Shown here piece by piece: positions 56,079 to 63,628 of a stretch of 64,000 bases of DNA. The notes below the pieces were generated by a model. It was not told the origin of the DNA. It ran no database searches and saw nothing but the letters and a program-made list of their open reading frames with translations. Source of the DNA: Lichenibacterium dinghuense. Its GTDB lineage: Bacteria > Pseudomonadota > Alphaproteobacteria > Rhizobiales > Beijerinckiaceae. The DNA lies in the NCBI RefSeq assembly GCF_021730615.1, contig NZ_JAJLMN010000001.1:806001-870000 (forward strand). The letters are read 5' to 3'. Numbering within the stretch: the first letter of the stretch is position 1; each line of letters opens with the position of its first letter. A program made the position numbers and the translations under genes.

Positions 56079-56564
56079 GACAATCACGGTACGTCTGACC
56101 GCATGCGCGGCTCGCCCACGGTGTAGGTCGGGTGATCTGCCATAGAGTCGCCGGCCCCTGTCACGCTCGCACGTACCGTGACCGGAAGGCGCCCCGTGCA
56201 CGGCTTCCGGGGATCGACCTTGAACGAAGCCTGTCACATCGTCCGCGACCTCAACATGCCGCTGCACGGTTCTGCGATGATCGATCGGTGGCGGACGATC
56301 ATCACGGGGCTACGCCGATGCGCACGGCTGTCCGCCGGCTGAAGCGGTGTAGACGCGACCACACCTTTTCCGGACGATGCCGCACGCGCAAAACGGTTTC
56401 GAGACGCTCGCGACCGGCTAGGGTCGGCACGCATCGACCTCTCGGACGGTGTTCCGTCACGCTCATAGCCGTCGAGACGACCGTCACGACGCTTCGGTCT
56501 TAGGTAGCAAGCTCACCTAAACCCATCTGCCCCGGCCGGAACGGATCGGCGATGATGCCGAGCC
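56079..56564. other. intergenic, no supported gene
   Basis: 486 bases between the split SnoaL-like gene and the coiled-coil/winged-helix gene. Short open frames exist on both strands, but none has a good start, a domain or a plausible composition. A VHGFRGST string on the plus strand recalls integrase motifs but is not part of a longer match. Confidence 0.5.
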
Positions 56565-56993
56565 ATGTCCCAGCCTCTCATCGTCACCCAACTCCTCCTC
56601 AAGCGAGCGGAGATCGAAGCCCAGATCAAGAGCCTTGAGGACCGCCTCGGCCAGGCTCGGGCCGATCTCCTCCACATCGCCGCGACGGTCCGCCTGTTCG
56701 ATCCCACGGCCATAGACAGGCCCGCTACGGTCTACCACGGCGCCGCGAAGGCCATGCGTCGGTCGGACGTGTTCGCGCTGTGCAAAGCGGCCCTGGAAGC
56801 CTCTCCCGAGCCCCTGTGCACCCGCCAGCTCGCTCGGCACGTCATCACGGCCGAGGGCTGGGATCAGGACGACACCCGCCTCCGCCTCACGGTCTCGCAC
56901 AAGGTCGGCGCCACGATGAAGCGCATGTCGCTGCGCGGGGCCGTGCGGAAGGTGGGCGAGCGGCAGAAGGCGAGCGTGTGGCGACTGGCGTAG
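56565..56993 (+). CDS. coiled-coil / winged-helix hypothetical protein
   Basis: 142 aa. The N-terminal half is a coiled coil (LLLKRAEIEAQIKSLEDRLG ... ADLLHIAATVRLFDP). The C-terminal half looks like a winged helix (RSDVFALCKAALEASPEPLC, TRQLARHVITAEG) with a basic tail ending VGERQKASVWRLA (quoted in parts). Similar small proteins recur in Hyphomicrobiales near mobile DNA; the function is unknown. The gene ends directly against the convergent DUF6894 gene. Decayed copies of its 3' end occur at 57769, 58846 and 59148. Confidence 0.75.
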   Translation: MSQPLIVTQLLLKRAEIEAQIKSLEDRLGQARADLLHIAATVRLFDPTAIDRPATVYHGAAKAMRRSDVFALCKAALEASPEPLCTRQLARHVITAEGWDQDDTRLRLTVSHKVGATMKRMSLRGAVRKVGERQKASVWRLA

Positions 56994-57248: not shown

Positions 57249-57430
57249 GTTCTCACTCTGCGGCTAGGGGTTGGCGGGTCCTGTCCTTTCAACCGACAGG
57301 ACGCCCTAGCGGAGGGTGCGACAAGGTGTCCAAAACAGGTTTTCTGAGCGGGATTTGTCCATAGGGTAGAGTTGCACACAATACTGATGTGCGAGAGGTT
57401 GCACCCGCGACATCACGACAGGGGGCCCCA

Positions 57431-57670
57431 GTGTCCAAGCCTACGCCCGCTCAGATCCGCGCGGCTCGCGGCATGCTCAATTGGTCCATGCTGGACCTTG
57501 CCAAGGCTGCTGGGGTGTCGATCTCGACGGTAAAGCGGTTTGAGTGCGAGGGAGATCAACCCGTGTCGGCCGATACCGTGGGCATGATGCAGGACGCCGC
57601 CGAGACGGAGGGCGTGCGCTTCCTAGCCGATGATGGAAACGGGCCAGGGGTGAGGCTGCAAAGGCGATAG
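57431..57670 (+). CDS. short XRE-type HTH regulator
   Basis: 79 aa from a GTG at 57431, preceded by AGGGGG. An upstream in-frame start at 57389 would add 14 residues. Cro/C1-type HTH: QIRAARGMLNWSMLDLAKAA, GVSISTVKRFECEGDQPVS. The C-terminal tail (GVRFLADDGNGPGVRLQR) has the short beta segment common to this small subfamily. A second member is at 62052. Probably a DNA-binding repressor; the target is unknown. Confidence 0.78.
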   Translation: MSKPTPAQIRAARGMLNWSMLDLAKAAGVSISTVKRFECEGDQPVSADTVGMMQDAAETEGVRFLADDGNGPGVRLQRR

Positions 57671-59408: not shown

Positions 59409-59969
59409 ATGCCTTTCGGAAAATGCTATGGTGACATCGAGATCTGGATACCTTCAATGTCGAGAGCAAAGCCAAACGTCCTCGTTGATGTCGTTTCCGA
59501 TAGAAACGTGACGATTGGTGGTGACTATCGGCACAATCTATTGAGGGAAGGAAAAAATTTTAGAACTGTTCATGTTATCGTCATCGACAGGTCTGGACGC
59601 CTTGTATTGCAAATGCTTCCTAGCGACCACACGCGCAGCCCTAATAAGATAGGATCATCTGTAGCGGGATACCTTCTTTCGGGAGAGTCATACATTCAAG
59701 CTGCTAGACGTAAGATGCTTGAGGAGCTTGGTATCTATTCTAATCTGCATGAAATTGGCGACATAGATATGCTTGACGAAAAGTCTCATAAATTCGTCAA
59801 GGTATTTACATGCCGCTACAATGACAAAATTGAGAGTTTCGATCAAGACGAAATTGCAAAACTTGTATACAAAACACGGTCTTGGCTGTCCGCGAACACC
59901 AATCGATTTCCAGAAAAATTCACCACTACCTTTCTGCGCGTCTTTAGCCTATACCAATCGAATGCCTGA
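59409..59969 (+). CDS. Nudix-like hydrolase, first gene of an AT-rich operon
   Basis: 186 aa. The Nudix region (about 50-135) starts RTVHVIVIDRSGRLVLQMLP. Its Nudix box at 87-109 reads GYLLSGESYIQAARRKMLEE then LGI; against Gx5Ex7REUxEExGU only the Glu after Arg101 is replaced (Lys102), while both Glu of EELG remain. This resembles the isopentenyl-diphosphate-isomerase-like Nudix branch. Nudix proteins hydrolyse nucleoside-diphosphate-linked substrates; the substrate here is unknown. Codon use is visibly AT-rich compared with the GC-rich surroundings, suggesting recent transfer. An internal ATG at 59457 is an alternative start. Confidence 0.8.
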   Translation: MPFGKCYGDIEIWIPSMSRAKPNVLVDVVSDRNVTIGGDYRHNLLREGKNFRTVHVIVIDRSGRLVLQMLPSDHTRSPNKIGSSVAGYLLSGESYIQAARRKMLEELGIYSNLHEIGDIDMLDEKSHKFVKVFTCRYNDKIESFDQDEIAKLVYKTRSWLSANTNRFPEKFTTTFLRVFSLYQSNA

Positions 59970-60600
59970 CAGCAGCCCATCCAAGGACATACTCCTCAAA
60001 GTCTACGATTCGGCGATTGCCGAATATAGATTCAACGTACAATTATCATGGGATAGGAACAAGTTTTTCCTGACACTCGTATCGGCAATCATCGCCTCCG
60101 GTGTGGGATTTATCAAAGTAGCTTCTGAGAACCGAGTGGACTCCGCTTTTCTTTTCTGCCTTTTCGCTGTTGCTGTTGCCATCACATCATACGCTATCGA
60201 GACGCTATCGACGGGAAAAAAGTACATCAGGGAGGCTAATTATAAAAAGATGCTGATCGAAAGGGAGCTTGGCTTATTAAATACGATTCCTAATTTCAAC
60301 TCTCCGAGATCAAATTTTGCTGTCGCCGTGACAGGGGGACAAAGAAATTTTGGTTCAATGATGCTTTCGGAAGACATAAAAAAGTCGATCTCTCAAAAGT
60401 CGATTACCGACAATCTCGCAAAAATATATGCCGGTATGATTGTTATCGAAATCATAGGATGCATCATATCGGCCGGTATGGTCATCGGTCCACTAGATAT
60501 GCAAGCCATTAAAACTAATGTACGCTCATTTGCCGAGAGACTATCGCACCCCATATCGCAGACCGACGTTAAAAGATCTCTGGCAGTAAGTCCTCATTAA
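59962..60600 (+). CDS. three-span membrane protein overlapping the Nudix gene
   Basis: 212 aa from the ATG at 59962, overlapping the Nudix stop by 8 bases, so translation is coupled. A cytoplasmic N-terminal helix (KDILLKVYDSAIAEYRF, NVQLSWDRNKFF) leads into TM1 (about 35-52) and TM2 (61-80). A ~75-residue cytoplasmic region follows, then TM3 (about 156-176) and a short tail. The pattern of aromatic/charged helix plus tight two-span hairpin resembles RipA-type oligomeric membrane proteins and, more loosely, SLATT-type effectors. The assignment is tentative. AT-rich like its partner. Confidence 0.7.
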   Translation: MPDSSPSKDILLKVYDSAIAEYRFNVQLSWDRNKFFLTLVSAIIASGVGFIKVASENRVDSAFLFCLFAVAVAITSYAIETLSTGKKYIREANYKKMLIERELGLLNTIPNFNSPRSNFAVAVTGGQRNFGSMMLSEDIKKSISQKSITDNLAKIYAGMIVIEIIGCIISAGMVIGPLDMQAIKTNVRSFAERLSHPISQTDVKRSLAVSPH

Positions 60601-60983: not shown

Positions 60984-61946
60984 TCAGTGCGCCGTTCGCT
61001 GCCAATAGCCCTTCCACACGCGGCTGACAGGGTGGCGGAGCGCCGCCTCCGTCATCATGAGGTACTGTTCACCGTTGGACACCCGGCGCTTGTCCTCCCG
61101 CCACGCCATCTCGCCCGCGTAGGCTTGGAGGTAGGGGCCGGCGATGTGGTGGTGGATGCCGATCTCGGCCCGGCGGATGCGGGAGAAGAACGACTCGGCG
61201 CCGTTGGTGCAGGCCTCGGCCGTCGAATAGGCTTCGGAGTGGTTGATGCGCTTCGTCAGGAAGCGGTCGTGCAGCGCATCCCAGCCGGCCGCTTCGTCGG
61301 CATAGACCGTCGAGCCCGGCGCCACCTTGCGGCCTATCGTGGCGACCGCCTCGGCCTCGGAGCGGAACACGAAGGGCAGCGTCTCGCCGCCCCGCTCGCG
61401 CATCACGACAACCACCTTGCGCTTGCCAGTCTGGTGCTGGGTCTTGCGGCGGTCGACGCGGTTCTCTTTCTCGTTGGCCGGCTTCACGTAGCCGCCGAAG
61501 TAGGCGCCATCGACCTCCACCTCGCCCGAGACGGTGCGCTCGGCGTCCTCGGCCGTCATGGCCTCGCGGATCTTATGGGCCAAGACGAAGGCCGTCTTGT
61601 ACTGGCAGTCGAGATCCCGGGAGAGCTGGAGCGCGGAGTGGCCCTTCACGCCGTTGGCGAAGATGGCGATGGCCATCAGGATATCGCGGATGGGCATCTT
61701 GCGGGAGGCAAAGATGGTGCCGCTCGTCACGCTGAACTGATGCGAGCACGCCTTGCACTTCCAAAGCCTGCGGGCCTTATAGGCGTAGGTGGCGGCGCAG
61801 GCGCAGCGGGGGCACACAGCCTCGCCCTTCGTCTCCGTCCAGCGGATCAGCCGGAAGGCGTCATGCGCTTCCTCATCCGAAAGCCGGGCGACCCGAGCGA
61901 GGCTCAGGCTCCTTGCGGCTTTGGAGAGGAGGAAGTGCTGGGGCAC
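60984..61946 (-). CDS. IS1595-family (ISXO2-like) transposase
   Basis: 320 aa. The N-terminal zinc ribbon CPRC...CKAC precedes the ISXO2 DDE-type core: EVEVDGAYFGGYVKP, GSTVYADEAAGWDAL and NGAESFFSRIRRAEIGIHH. The frame is intact. I could not find convincing terminal inverted repeats or duplications around it, so it may be a stranded or domesticated copy. It is divergent from the XRE gene at 62052, with an inverted repeat in between. Confidence 0.9.
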   Translation of the reverse strand: MPQHFLLSKAARSLSLARVARLSDEEAHDAFRLIRWTETKGEAVCPRCACAATYAYKARRLWKCKACSHQFSVTSGTIFASRKMPIRDILMAIAIFANGVKGHSALQLSRDLDCQYKTAFVLAHKIREAMTAEDAERTVSGEVEVDGAYFGGYVKPANEKENRVDRRKTQHQTGKRKVVVVMRERGGETLPFVFRSEAEAVATIGRKVAPGSTVYADEAAGWDALHDRFLTKRINHSEAYSTAEACTNGAESFFSRIRRAEIGIHHHIAGPYLQAYAGEMAWREDKRRVSNGEQYLMMTEAALRHPVSRVWKGYWQRTAH

Positions 61947-61958
61947 GGCGAGAGGACC

Positions 61959-62018
61959 AACGTTTTCCGTTGACCTCAGTGATAAGCGTGGAAAGCATTG
62001 GCGTCAACAGAAAACGTT
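61959..62018. promoter_or_regulatory. 16-bp inverted repeat between the transposase and XRE genes
   Basis: AACGTTTTCCGTTGAC (61959-61974) and its near-perfect inverse GTCAACAGAAAACGTT (62003-62018), 15 of 16 bases matching, separated by 28 bases. It covers the divergent promoter region. An operator for the XRE protein, or a transposase-binding site, would fit; neither is shown. Confidence 0.55.
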
Positions 62019-62045
62019 GACGTGGGCGGCGCGAAACCGTATTAG
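62017..62045 (+). promoter_or_regulatory. sigma70-type promoter giving a probable leaderless XRE mRNA
   Basis: TTGACG (62017-62022), a 17-base spacer, then TATTAG (62040-62045). The predicted start site falls at about 62052, the A of the ATG, and no Shine-Dalgarno sequence is present. The -35 overlaps the right arm of the inverted repeat. Confidence 0.6.
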
Positions 62046-62051
62046 GCCCGC

Positions 62052-62318
62052 ATGACGATGCCTTCCCCGATCCTGACACCGGAACAGAGCCGAGCGGCCC
62101 GTGGATGGCTGGACTGGGGGCAACAGGAGCTTGCCACCGCCGCGAACGTCTCGCTTTCGACGGTTCGAGATTTCGAGAAGGGTCGGCGGGTTCCGATCTC
62201 GAATAATCTAGGGGCAATGCGAGCTGCCCTCGAAGGGCGAGGGATCGCTTTCGTTGAAGGCGAAACGACATTGGGCGTCATCGGTCCGAAGCCCGGCGCT
62301 GGACCCGCCACGGGCTGA
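62052..62318 (+). CDS. short XRE-type HTH regulator
   Basis: 88 aa. Cro/C1-type HTH: LTPEQSRAARGWLDWGQQEL, ATAANVSLSTVRDFEKGRRV, then the tail with GRGIAFVEG. A relative of the 57431 protein (same RAARG start and tail design). Probably represses its own and perhaps the divergent transposase promoter through the inverted repeat at 61959-62018. The ATG at 62052 coincides with the predicted transcription start. Confidence 0.82.
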   Translation: MTMPSPILTPEQSRAARGWLDWGQQELATAANVSLSTVRDFEKGRRVPISNNLGAMRAALEGRGIAFVEGETTLGVIGPKPGAGPATG

Positions 62319-62335
62319 AATGGTAAAAGACAGCG

Positions 62336-62403
62336 TGGACTAGGAGGGAGTCGAACCCTCGGGGCGTTGGATGGAAAGCCGCACCCCGCTCCGGCTCTAG
62401 CCC
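62336..62403 (-). ncRNA. tRNA-like fold without an anticodon arm
   Basis: The minus strand can form a 7-bp acceptor stem (GGGCTAG/CTAGTCC, one G-U), a 5-bp D-like arm (AGCCG...CGGCT) and a T arm GAGGG TTCGACT CCCTC with the consensus T loop. Only ~16 unpaired bases take the place of the anticodon arm. No CCA is encoded. It may be a decayed tRNA, an attachment-site remnant or a tRNA mimic. Confidence 0.45.
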
Positions 62404-62460
62404 AGTGCAGAGGCGATCACTCGCCGCTGCGCTTCGCGTCTGACGGATCACTCCACGATG

Positions 62461-62497
62461 AGGCCGCTCGTCCCTGCCAGGGCGAGCGGCCTTTTTC
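62461..62497 (+). terminator. very strong intrinsic terminator
   Basis: A 10-bp perfect stem AGGCCGCTCG/CGAGCGGCCT with inner pairing CCCT-GCC-AGGG is followed by TTTTT. It would end transcripts coming from the XRE gene on the plus strand and insulate the P63C gene. Confidence 0.9.
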
Positions 62498-62518
62498 GTT
62501 CGGCACAGTCAGCATACC

Positions 62519-62558
62519 TTGCATCTCGCATCGTGCAAGCGCATTATGCTCGCATAAT
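62519..62558 (+). promoter_or_regulatory. promoter and palindromic operator of the P63C gene
   Basis: TTGCAT (62519-62524), a 17-base spacer, then CATTAT (62542-62547). The -10 is covered by the perfect palindrome ATTATGC-TC-GCATAAT (62543-62558), ideally placed for a repressor. The start codon is 15 bases further on. Confidence 0.6.
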
Positions 62559-62572
62559 CGGAGTATGCAAGC

Positions 62573-63628
62573 ATGGCTGACAACGGTGAGAAGGACGAAG
62601 TCAGGGTCGAGGCCGGCAAAGCACGATGGAGGGGAGTCACGAAAACGGACCGCTCCGAGGCGGCCAAGAGGGCTGCCGAAGCACGATGGGCTAAACCTAT
62701 TGAACTGCCTGAAGATGAGGAAGTCCTCGAGCCGGCACCAACCATGCCCGTGGCGCGGTGGCGGGGGGCGCTGAACATCGTCGGGCTCGAGGTGCCGTGC
62801 TACGTCCTCGACAACGGGGAAAAGATCATCGGCAGAACCTCGGCGACCGAGCTTTTGACGGGGATTAAGGGGGGTGGAGCCCTCGAGAAATATCTGGGCG
62901 TCAGAGCCCTAGAACCTTTTGTAAACAATGAGTTAGTGCTCGAGAGAATGGTGCCGTTTCGCCTCCCCGGGGTGGAGGGATTGGAGAAAGCTGTTAAAGG
63001 CCTCCCTGCGGATTTGATGATCGAAATCTGCCAAGGCTTCGTCGCCGCTTTGCAGGCCTCCTTAGATCCTGCTTCAACTCATCCAAAGATGACTGATCGT
63101 CAGAGGCAGATGGCGATCAAAGCGAGCATGTTCCTTTCAGCGTGCGCTAAAGTTGGCCTCGAGGCCTTGATAGATGAAGCTACCGGATATCAATACGAGC
63201 GCGCGGAAGATGCTCTGCAGGTCAAGTTGCGTGCTTTCATCGCTGACGAGCTTCGAGCTTGGGAAAAAATGTTCCCTGATGAGCTTTGGGCAGAGTTTGG
63301 CCGTCTCACCGGATGGCAAGGTGCTCTGAAAAGCCGTCCGAAGTGGTGGGGTAAGCTTGTCATTGAACTGATCTATGACACCCTGGACAAGGATGTTGCC
63401 GACTTCCTCAAAAACAACAAGCCGCCGCCCGGTGTTCGTTGGCATCGTCAATTGACAGAGAATATTGGCGTTCGAGCACTTGTCTCTCGCTGCTATGAGG
63501 TGATTGGTATGGCGAAGGACTGTTCGGACATGAGAGAACTGCGGGACAAAGTGGCGAAGCACTATGGGCGCCAAGTTGTGCAGTTTTCCATGGCGCTTCC
63601 CAACCCGAAGGCGGAGGCCGCCCACTGA
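62573..63628 (+). CDS. P63C domain-containing protein
   Basis: 351 aa. The N terminus is charged with two similar motifs (EAGKARWRGVTKTDRSEAAK and RAAEARWAKP, quoted in parts). The middle has LDNGEKIIGRTSATELL, a KilA-N/Bro-like opening, then ACAKVGLEALIDEATGYQYE. The C-terminal P63C-type domain follows: DELRAWEKMFPDELWAEFGR and HRQLTENIGVRALVSRCYE. P63C proteins are linked to phages and genomic islands; the role is unknown, perhaps antirepressor-like. Lower GC than the chromosomal genes. Confidence 0.8.
   Translation: MADNGEKDEVRVEAGKARWRGVTKTDRSEAAKRAAEARWAKPIELPEDEEVLEPAPTMPVARWRGALNIVGLEVPCYVLDNGEKIIGRTSATELLTGIKGGGALEKYLGVRALEPFVNNELVLERMVPFRLPGVEGLEKAVKGLPADLMIEICQGFVAALQASLDPASTHPKMTDRQRQMAIKASMFLSACAKVGLEALIDEATGYQYERAEDALQVKLRAFIADELRAWEKMFPDELWAEFGRLTGWQGALKSRPKWWGKLVIELIYDTLDKDVADFLKNNKPPPGVRWHRQLTENIGVRALVSRCYEVIGMAKDCSDMRELRDKVAKHYGRQVVQFSMALPNPKAEAAH

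What the first reader, a model, noticed from the sequence alone, without database searches (positions are those of the whole stretch)
62336..62403. Compact tRNA-like RNA lacking an anticodon arm
Acceptor (7 bp), D-like (5 bp) and T arm (5 bp with TTCGACT loop) can form in 67 bases, with no anticodon stem and no CCA. It sits between a phage-type regulator and a strong terminator. It could be a decayed tRNA, an island attachment remnant, or a tRNA mimic carried by a mobile element.
Basis: partly seen in the sequence, partly recalled or inferred. Interest (0 to 1): 0.5.

Follow-up and report, generated by a model that had tools for sequence, protein, structure and literature searches.

The report
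Transposon-borne miniature alanine-type tRNA
A jumping gene in this bacterium carries the gene for a tiny, oddly shaped transfer RNA that looks built to be loaded with alanine, and relatives of it ride on similar jumping genes in very different bacteria.

Summary
The structure is real, lies on the minus strand (62403 to 62336) and does not look like a decayed tRNA. A covariance model built without the window finds it at 71.7 bits; the next hit in 64 kb, the ordinary tRNA-Trp, has 16. In an ungapped alignment of 11 members, 15 of 22 base pairs show changes on both sides. An anticodon-position arm exists: 6 bp, internal loop, 2 bp, 8-nt loop CUUUCCAU. It is the D arm that is reduced (2 bp).

Of 31 RNAs collected, 28 have alanine identity elements (G3:U70, A73) and 3 a glycine-type end; in 9 of the 28 the search had fixed U70 and A73. 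D-loop position 18 and T-loop position 55 covary in 30 of 31.

The gene lies inside an IS1595-family transposon (56495-64925, 8-bp target duplication). Of 30 transposase loci in the family, 16 have the XRE gene and 12 of those carry such an RNA; none of the other 14 does.

Best reading: a mobile, non-canonical, alanine-accepting tRNA, comparable to allo-tRNAs but differently built. Its role (missense or frameshift tRNA, or regulator) is untested.

The parts
62336..62403 (-). Mini-tRNA (68 nt, G1 at 62403, A73 at 62336)
   Evidence: Window-free covariance model 71.7 bits; relatives
62397..62403 (-). 5' strand of the 7-bp acceptor stem (GGGCUAG), pairs with 62337-62343 (CUAGUCC); third pair is G3:U70
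62388..62396 (-). D arm, 2 bp; in the window the pairs are shifted by one base against the other members
62361..62387 (-). Anticodon-position arm: 6 bp, 1x2 internal loop, 2 bp, loop CUUUCCAU at 62371-62378
62344..62360 (-). T arm, 5 bp, loop UUCGACU
62052..62318 (+). XRE-type regulator gene (88 aa), convergent with the mini-tRNA; linked to it in 12 of 16 transposase loci
61958..62019 (.). Palindrome CAACGTTTTCCGTTGAC ... GTCAACAGAAAACGTTG between transposase and XRE gene, possible operator (inference); partly conserved in L. minor
60984..61946 (-). IS1595-family transposase (320 aa), same strand as and downstream of the mini-tRNA
   Evidence: Pfam DDE_Tnp_IS1595 147.9 bits, cut-off 27
62460..62493 (+). 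Terminator-like hairpin; its U run lies on the XRE strand, so XRE transcripts would run antisense through the mini-tRNA
62573..63628 (+). P63C-domain passenger gene (351 aa)
   Evidence: Pfam P63C 78.8 bits, cut-off 26.1
56495..56517 (+). Left terminal repeat CGGTCTTAGGTAGCAAGCTCACC; the right one lies outside the window at 64903-64925 (6 of 23 mismatches)
56487..56494 (.). Left copy of the 8-bp target duplication CGACGCTT; the right copy follows 64925
56565..56993 (+). Small coiled-coil / winged-helix-type protein gene at the left end; relatives of this kind often lie just upstream of the mini-tRNA in other elements (judged by eye)

Best explanation
The feature is a gene for a non-canonical 68-nt tRNA carried inside an IS1595-family transposon. 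Shown here: a conserved cloverleaf with a 2-bp D arm, a lengthened anticodon-position arm with an 8-nt loop and a canonical T arm; alanine-type ends (G3:U70, A73) in 28 of 31 RNAs; elbow-type covariation; a place inside a transposon next to an XRE gene. Inferred from established tRNA biology (about 0.8): the transcript is trimmed by RNase P and RNase Z, given CCA by the host enzyme and charged with alanine by host AlaRS, which does not read the anticodon. Inferred more weakly (about 0.4): the charged RNA acts on host translation as a missense or frameshifting tRNA (U33, then UUCC or another element-specific sequence, then A37), while the XRE protein and the antisense end of its mRNA keep it in check, giving the element a regulated effect on its host or on its own transposition.
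For: A model built without the window scores it 71.7 bits. In A8, 97.9% of cells pair, 15 of 22 pairs change on both sides, 0 of 500 shuffles reach any of the five measures, slid versions are far lower. G-U pairs (3:65 in 9 of 11, 21:39 in 9 of 11) fix the strand, since they would be A-C mismatches on the other one. Members not used in model R2 score 43.7 to 67.8 bits with it. 28 of 31 RNAs have GGG...UCC-A, 3 have GCG...CGC-U; of the 28, 19 were found without fixing U70 or A73. In the 13 pattern hits with a perfect acceptor stem the pattern fixed U70 but left position 3 free: 13 of 13 have G, none A. D-loop/T-loop: AG with G55 in 11, GG with U55 or C55 in 19, 1 exception. Terminal repeats with exact 8-bp duplications in the window element and in 4 relatives. 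RNA in 12 of 16 XRE-bearing and 0 of 14 XRE-less transposase loci; among the 13 RNAs there the loop varies while 12 keep the alanine end. Two members lie 5-6 nt from predicted ordinary tRNA genes (L085, L078).
Against: No transcript, charging or ribosome data. CCA is mostly not encoded. An 8-nt loop on an interrupted stem is not that of a canonical decoding tRNA. Folding energy is unremarkable. Element genes show no consistent use or avoidance of GGA and no conserved in-frame GGAA. In 61900-62700 the only sigma-70-like match on that strand lies 150 nt upstream of G1, beyond the terminator. 4 of 16 XRE-bearing loci show no RNA (L096 is cut by a contig end). A8 holds 11 of the 20 members then known, chosen for equal length and register, so its pair counts lean towards fit; the window itself breaks the aligned D pairs. 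2 of 31 RNAs have only 6 of 7 acceptor pairs and 4 have only 4 of 5 T pairs. Members are rare: with R2, 10 of 248 family genomes and 4 of 349 phylum genomes, the own genome counted in both.
Confidence: 0.65

Rival explanations
1. A regulatory or decoy RNA: it folds and is perhaps charged like tRNA-Ala but never decodes. It acts by binding AlaRS, the XRE protein or the coiled-coil/winged-helix protein, or by pairing with the antisense end of the XRE mRNA, and so sets transposase or host gene expression.
For: Unusual anticodon arm; close linkage to the XRE gene (12 of 16 against 0 of 14); convergent layout with a terminator placed so that XRE transcripts cover the RNA; no sign of decoding in element genes.
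Against: Constant alanine (or glycine) identity with U33 and A37 kept in most loops looks like selection for a charged tRNA with an anticodon. No antisense target for the loop in 7 elements.
Confidence: 0.25
2. A processing signal: a tRNA-like structure at the 3' end of the upstream gene's mRNA that directs RNase P and RNase Z to cut it, as for MALAT1 mascRNA (recalled).
For: In 17 of 30 loci a small coiled-coil/winged-helix gene (judged by eye) ends within 170 nt upstream or overlaps the RNA, on the same strand; often too little room for a promoter between hairpin and G1.
Against: In the window, L009, L026 and others no such gene precedes it on that strand; constant amino acid identity would be needless.
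Confidence: 0.07
3. The plus strand makes the functional RNA: the 3' end of the XRE mRNA, ending in the terminator, with the tRNA-like look a by-product.
For: Terminator U run on the plus strand; similar layout by eye in about ten relatives.
Against: Frequent G-U pairs would be A-C mismatches on the plus strand; T-loop, elbow and identity elements make sense only on the minus strand.
Confidence: 0.02
4. A decayed host tRNA or an integration-site remnant.
For: Loss of the normal D arm and of CCA; low Rfam tRNA score.
Against: Compensated changes between distant carriers; it lies 5.8 kb inside the left end of the transposon, not at an end; no intact parent in the genome where looked for.
Confidence: 0.01

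Closest known systems
Allo-tRNAs (Mukai et al. 2017, not held; known here through sections of the review PMC7609411)
   Same: Non-canonical bacterial tRNAs with one acceptor identity and very diverse anticodons; some carry G3:U70; [quoted passage not shown]
   Different: Allo-tRNAs have a 12-bp acceptor branch as 8/4 or 9/3 and mostly serine identity elements. This RNA has 7/5, no variable arm, a 2-bp D arm, a lengthened anticodon arm, and alanine or glycine ends.
Canonical bacterial tRNA-Ala and tRNA-Gly
   Same: 7-bp acceptor, 5-bp T stem, G3:U70 and A73 (Ala), or GCG...CGC with U73 (Gly; recalled). CUUUCCAU resembles a glycine UCC anticodon loop (recalled).
   Different: 68 nt, 2-bp D arm, 8-nt loop on a 6+2 bp arm, CCA mostly not encoded; missed by ARAGORN and below the Rfam tRNA threshold.
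tmRNA tRNA-like domain
   Same: Alanine-type acceptor with G3:U70 (recalled).
   Different: No tmRNA predicted in the window; tmRNA has no anticodon arm (recalled), this RNA has one.
Bacterial Y RNA (YrlA)
   Same: tRNA-like part (recalled); hit L034 has G3:U70 and A73 and lies between genes that I take for rsr and rtcB (by eye).
   Different: No such genes beside the window RNA; L034 was left out of the family count.
IS1595-family transposons with passenger genes
   Same: Transposase, terminal repeats, 8-bp duplication, passenger genes.
   Different: I found no report of a structured RNA gene as passenger in the searches made.
Frameshift-suppressor tRNAs with an extra anticodon-loop base (such as SufB2, seen in the listing)
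   Same: 8-nt anticodon loop.
   Different: Those are mutant or engineered normal tRNAs; decoding by this RNA is untested.

Membership tests
IS1595-family transposon (carrier) | DDE transposase of the IS1595 type | tested here: met
   Pfam DDE_Tnp_IS1595 147.9 bits, cut-off 27
IS1595-family transposon (carrier) | Terminal inverted repeats with 8-bp target duplication | tested here: met
   56495-64925, duplication CGACGCTT exact; right repeat has 6 mismatches in 23; L064, L066, L072, L077 likewise
tRNA-Ala identity | G3:U70 and A73 | tested here: met
tRNA-Ala identity | Charging with alanine | not testable with these tools
   needs a biochemical assay
Canonical tRNA | Found by ARAGORN or by Rfam tRNA at threshold | tested here: not met
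   of the further loci scanned, no family member was called
Canonical tRNA | D stem of 3-4 bp, 5-bp anticodon stem with 7-nt loop | tested here: not met
   2-bp D stem; 6 bp, internal loop, 2 bp, 8-nt loop
Canonical tRNA | D-loop/T-loop elbow contact | tested here: met
   positions 18 and 55 covary in 30 of 31; D dinucleotide taken by pattern, members partly related
Allo-tRNA | 12-bp acceptor branch as 8/4 or 9/3 | tested here: not met
   7/5 in the 11 aligned members
Allo-tRNA | Serine identity with long variable arm | tested here: not met
   no base between anticodon-position arm and T arm in the 11 aligned members
tmRNA | mRNA-like domain with tag | tested here: not met
   ARAGORN predicts none in the window
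Bacterial Y RNA (YrlA) | rsr (Ro60) gene beside it | tested here: not met
   neighbours are XRE, IS1595 transposase, P63C
Frameshift / quadruplet tRNA | 8-nt anticodon loop | tested here: inconclusive
   8 nt in 27 of 31 as read by eye; in L085, L088 and one RNA of L100 a 7-nt reading is also possible
Frameshift / quadruplet tRNA | +1 frameshifting at its codon | not testable with these tools
   no conserved GGAA in element genes

The most novel reading that the evidence does not exclude
Transposons in several phyla carry their own miniature alanine- or glycine-accepting tRNAs with 8-nt anticodon loops and element-specific anticodons: natural, mobile missense or quadruplet-decoding tRNAs under control of an XRE repressor, by which a transposon alters how its host reads the genetic code.
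Probability: 0.3. Interest if true: 0.9.

Novelty: new variant of a known kind. Interest (0 to 1): 0.72.

Why it matters
The natural role of non-canonical bacterial tRNAs such as allo-tRNAs is unsettled, and a link of one group to transposons was only a hypothesis (PMC7609411). This family ties such an RNA to a defined transposon, a defined neighbouring regulator and a nearly fixed amino acid identity while its anticodon loop varies. That makes the hypothesis testable: charge it, express it, look for misincorporation. It also gives a covariance model for RNAs that tRNA finders miss.

Tried and rejected
Folding energy as evidence: not significant. Rfam with a relaxed threshold: tRNA 20.5 bits; the other listed families lie far below their cut-offs. 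BLAST of RNA-sized queries against plasmids and phages: no match. Six loci chosen from the 18 plasmid records hold no member. Antisense target for the loop inside 7 elements: no clear excess over 60 shuffled 12-mers each; the window element has a 10-base match, which the best shuffles equal. Decoding of the element's own genes: GGA is absent from the transposase genes of the window, L009, L026 and L066, but also from that of XRE-less L106, and present in other genes of the same elements; in-frame GGAA is rare and not conserved. XRE palindrome at the mini-tRNA: not there, only between transposase and XRE gene. AlphaFold model of one coiled-coil/winged-helix protein: mean pLDDT 57.7, only the long helix and a helix-helix-helix-strand-strand order usable; no Pfam family at cut-off for 10 such proteins.

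Rows dropped before counting; 4 short matches besides the own genome and G001. L029; of 48 genomes with a hit, 4 hold members (window, L031, L032, L033); L034 dropped as probable Y RNA; 43 further hits of 37.2 bits or less, nearly all about 87 nt long, not taken; the five of them scanned are predicted tRNA-Ser. L061, L067, L069 dropped for lack of an acceptor stem; L067 later scored 25.2 bits with R2 and was still left out. L080, L081 dropped; a tRNA in L066. L105 (predicted tRNA-Ser) and L096 (predicted tRNA-Thr) hits. A8 leaves out members of other length or register.

Prior work: paper searches (listings and abstract starts seen); sections 7 and 10 and the abstract of PMC7609411 and passages of PMC7590224 read. 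Mukai et al. 2017 (PMC5389517) is not held, so I cannot exclude that such RNAs were noted there. Identity elements of glycine tRNAs, tRNA elbow contacts, tmRNA, Y RNA and mascRNA features are recalled.

Full report
What was checked first. The coordinates hold, on the minus strand (62403 to 62336). ARAGORN finds only a tRNA-Trp in the window, Rfam at gathering score likewise. With a relaxed threshold Rfam tRNA matches exactly this stretch at 20.5 bits, cut-off 29. Its folding energy is not remarkable, so the case rests on relatives.

Relatives. BLAST of the 101-bp stretch against 60 related genomes gave 6 with a match: the own genome, one clear relative in the same genus (G001, 80% identical) and four short matches. 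Among 397 family genomes 6 matched: the own one, G001, three further members (L026, L027, L028) and one that I did not take (L029). The members share the outer pairing, the T arm and the stretch GGCTTTCCATCC. A pattern holding the 3' part but not the 5' strand of the acceptor was then scanned over genome contigs and IMG/VR: 14 and 2 stretches. In 13 of these 16 a perfect 7-bp partner for the 3' strand lies upstream although the pattern did not ask for it. Carriers by record title: Lichenibacterium minor, Methylocella silvestris, Methylocystis silviterrae, Bradyrhizobium sp. RD5-C2, Sphingomonas sp. ID1715, Pedobacter sp. AK013, and assembled genomes labelled Alphaproteobacteria, Beijerinckiaceae, Betaproteobacteria, Terriglobia and Verrucomicrobiaceae. 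Contig length and sequence identify G001 with Lichenibacterium minor, so the window's organism belongs to that genus as the database draws it.

Structure. Eleven of the 20 members then known, chosen for equal length and register, align without gaps. Acceptor (7 bp), D arm (2 bp), anticodon-position arm (6 bp, 1x2 internal loop, 2 bp, 8-nt loop) and T arm (5 bp) pair in 97.9% of cells; 15 of 22 pairs change on both sides; 0 of 500 shuffles reach any of the five measures; slid versions collapse. The window itself does not form the two D pairs in the aligned register; its minimum-energy fold has them shifted by one. L066 and L065 fold exactly as drawn, L083 differs around the D and T arms and L071 folds otherwise. 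Frequent G-U pairs settle the strand. A model built from the ten other sequences finds the window RNA at 71.7 bits, E 1.8e-14, and next the tRNA-Trp at 16 bits. Members not used for model R2 score 43.7 to 67.8 bits with it.

Identity elements. I collected 31 RNAs from 30 loci. 28 begin GGG and end UCC-A: the third pair is G3:U70 with A73, the alanine identity element as stated in PMC7609411. Three (L078, L083, L107) begin GCG and end CGC-U, as in glycine tRNAs (recalled). Caution: 9 of the 28 (L060, L062, L063, L065, L066, L071, L072, L074, L075) were first found with a pattern that fixed U70, C71, C72 and A73. Even there position 3 was free and is G in 13 of 13 pattern hits, never A. The other 19 alanine-type and the 3 glycine-type RNAs came from BLAST, covariance models, transposase neighbourhoods or a pattern without the acceptor; no third class appeared. 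That last pattern gave 8 stretches: alanine-type L074, L075, L079 and the window, glycine-type L078 and L083, and two taken as chance, L080 and L081. Two of the 31 have 6 of 7 acceptor pairs and four have 4 of 5 T pairs.

Elbow. In canonical tRNAs D-loop G18 contacts T-loop position 55 (recalled). Here the D loop reads AG where position 55 is G (11 RNAs) and GG where it is U or C (15 and 4); L101 is the one exception. The D dinucleotide was picked by a text pattern and members are partly related, so these are not 30 independent events.

The loop. As read by eye: 17 of 31 have CUUUCCAU; AUUUCCAG, CUACCCAC, CUUCCCAC, UUGUCCAC, GUUUGCAG and GUUGGUGA occur once each; CUAUCCAC and AUUUGCAG twice each; one is a 7-nt AUUCCUA, two read CCUCAUCAA (9 nt), and L107 could not be assigned. 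CUACCCAC, CUUCCCAC and UUGUCCAC could also be read as 7-nt loops. In the transposase sample, where neither loop nor acceptor end was demanded as a fixed string, the 13 RNAs vary widely in the loop while 12 keep the alanine end. Keeping one amino acid identity while the anticodon varies is what the review describes for allo-tRNAs.

The carrier. L064, L066 and L072 lie between perfect 23-25-bp inverted repeats flanked by exact 8-bp duplications. The same kind of repeat occurs in the window at 56495 and, past its end, at 64903-64925, with CGACGCTT on both outer sides; L. minor has its own copy with CACAATCG. The window element is 8,431 bp. It holds, from the left, a coiled-coil/winged-helix-type gene (by eye), a DUF6894 gene, a second HTH gene, a NUDIX gene, an 8xMP membrane-protein gene, the transposase, the XRE gene, the mini-tRNA and a P63C gene. 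In Pedobacter (L071) and in L032 the neighbouring transposase is again IS1595-type; in L062 and L065 it is IS1-type (29.5 and 27.2 bits, cut-off 24.1). L060, L063, L075 and L085, among others, show no such transposase in the stretch held.

Link to the XRE gene. 149 family genomes gave 30 transposase loci, all fetched. 16 have the XRE gene beside the transposase; 12 of these have an RNA at the equivalent place (E below 0.005), one of them two. None of the other 14 has one; the weak L105 hit is a predicted tRNA-Ser on the far side of the transposase. Of the four XRE-bearing loci without RNA (L095, L096, L098, L102), L096 is cut by a contig end.

Transcription. The terminator-like hairpin beside the window RNA has its U run on the plus strand, so XRE transcripts would run antisense through the RNA before stopping. 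By eye about ten relatives have the same layout, among them L062, L065 and L071, where I saw no XRE gene. In 17 of 30 loci a gene that I judge by eye to encode a small coiled-coil/winged-helix protein ends 37-170 nt upstream on the same strand (in L063 it overlaps the RNA by 12 nt); many of these proteins are not detectably similar to one another by BLAST. In the window no such gene precedes the RNA; the one it has lies at the other end of the element.

Mechanism. Most likely the RNA is processed and charged as a tRNA and works through its charged form. Whether it does so on the ribosome, as a missense or frameshift tRNA, or as a regulator, cannot be decided here. Codon content gives no support for decoding of the elements' own genes, and no antisense target of the loop was found.

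Novelty. In the loci scanned no family member reaches a Rfam threshold, and ten paper searches found no description; Mukai et al. 2017 could not be read. I file it as a new variant of a known kind, non-canonical bacterial tRNAs. It is not an allo-tRNA, because the defining 8/4 or 9/3 branch was tested and is absent.

Noticed in passing
L100 949-1019 and 1052-1119: One transposon carries two different mini-tRNAs in tandem, with loops AUUUGCAG and UUGUCCAC.
   Followed up: partly
L064 1356-5635 and L072 1530-4939: Two elements in different genomes have nearly the same target site (duplications gataatcg and gatagtcg, then atcgcg); flanking reading frames look like a glycosyltransferase gene, and the L070 element also ends inside such a frame.
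   Followed up: partly
L034 1501-1575: tRNA-like RNA with G3:U70, A73 and encoded CCA between frames that I take for rsr (Ro60) and rtcB, probably a Y RNA; Rfam tRNA 30.0 bits, just above threshold.
   Followed up: partly
L078 11847-11921: An IMG/VR contig has a predicted tRNA-Ala(UGC) 6 nt upstream of a glycine-type mini-tRNA; by eye its acceptor seems to lack G3:U70.
   Followed up: no
window 57389-57670: A second HTH gene in the same transposon, with no recognisable mini-tRNA near it.
   Followed up: partly
window 59409-60600: NUDIX gene followed by an 8xMP membrane-protein gene inside the transposon, possibly a passenger module.
   Followed up: no
L003, L004, L005 around 1501-1521: Three near-identical stretches elsewhere in the host genome hold a T-arm-like sequence (AGAGGGTTCGACACCCTC); ARAGORN calls no tRNA there.
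   Followed up: no
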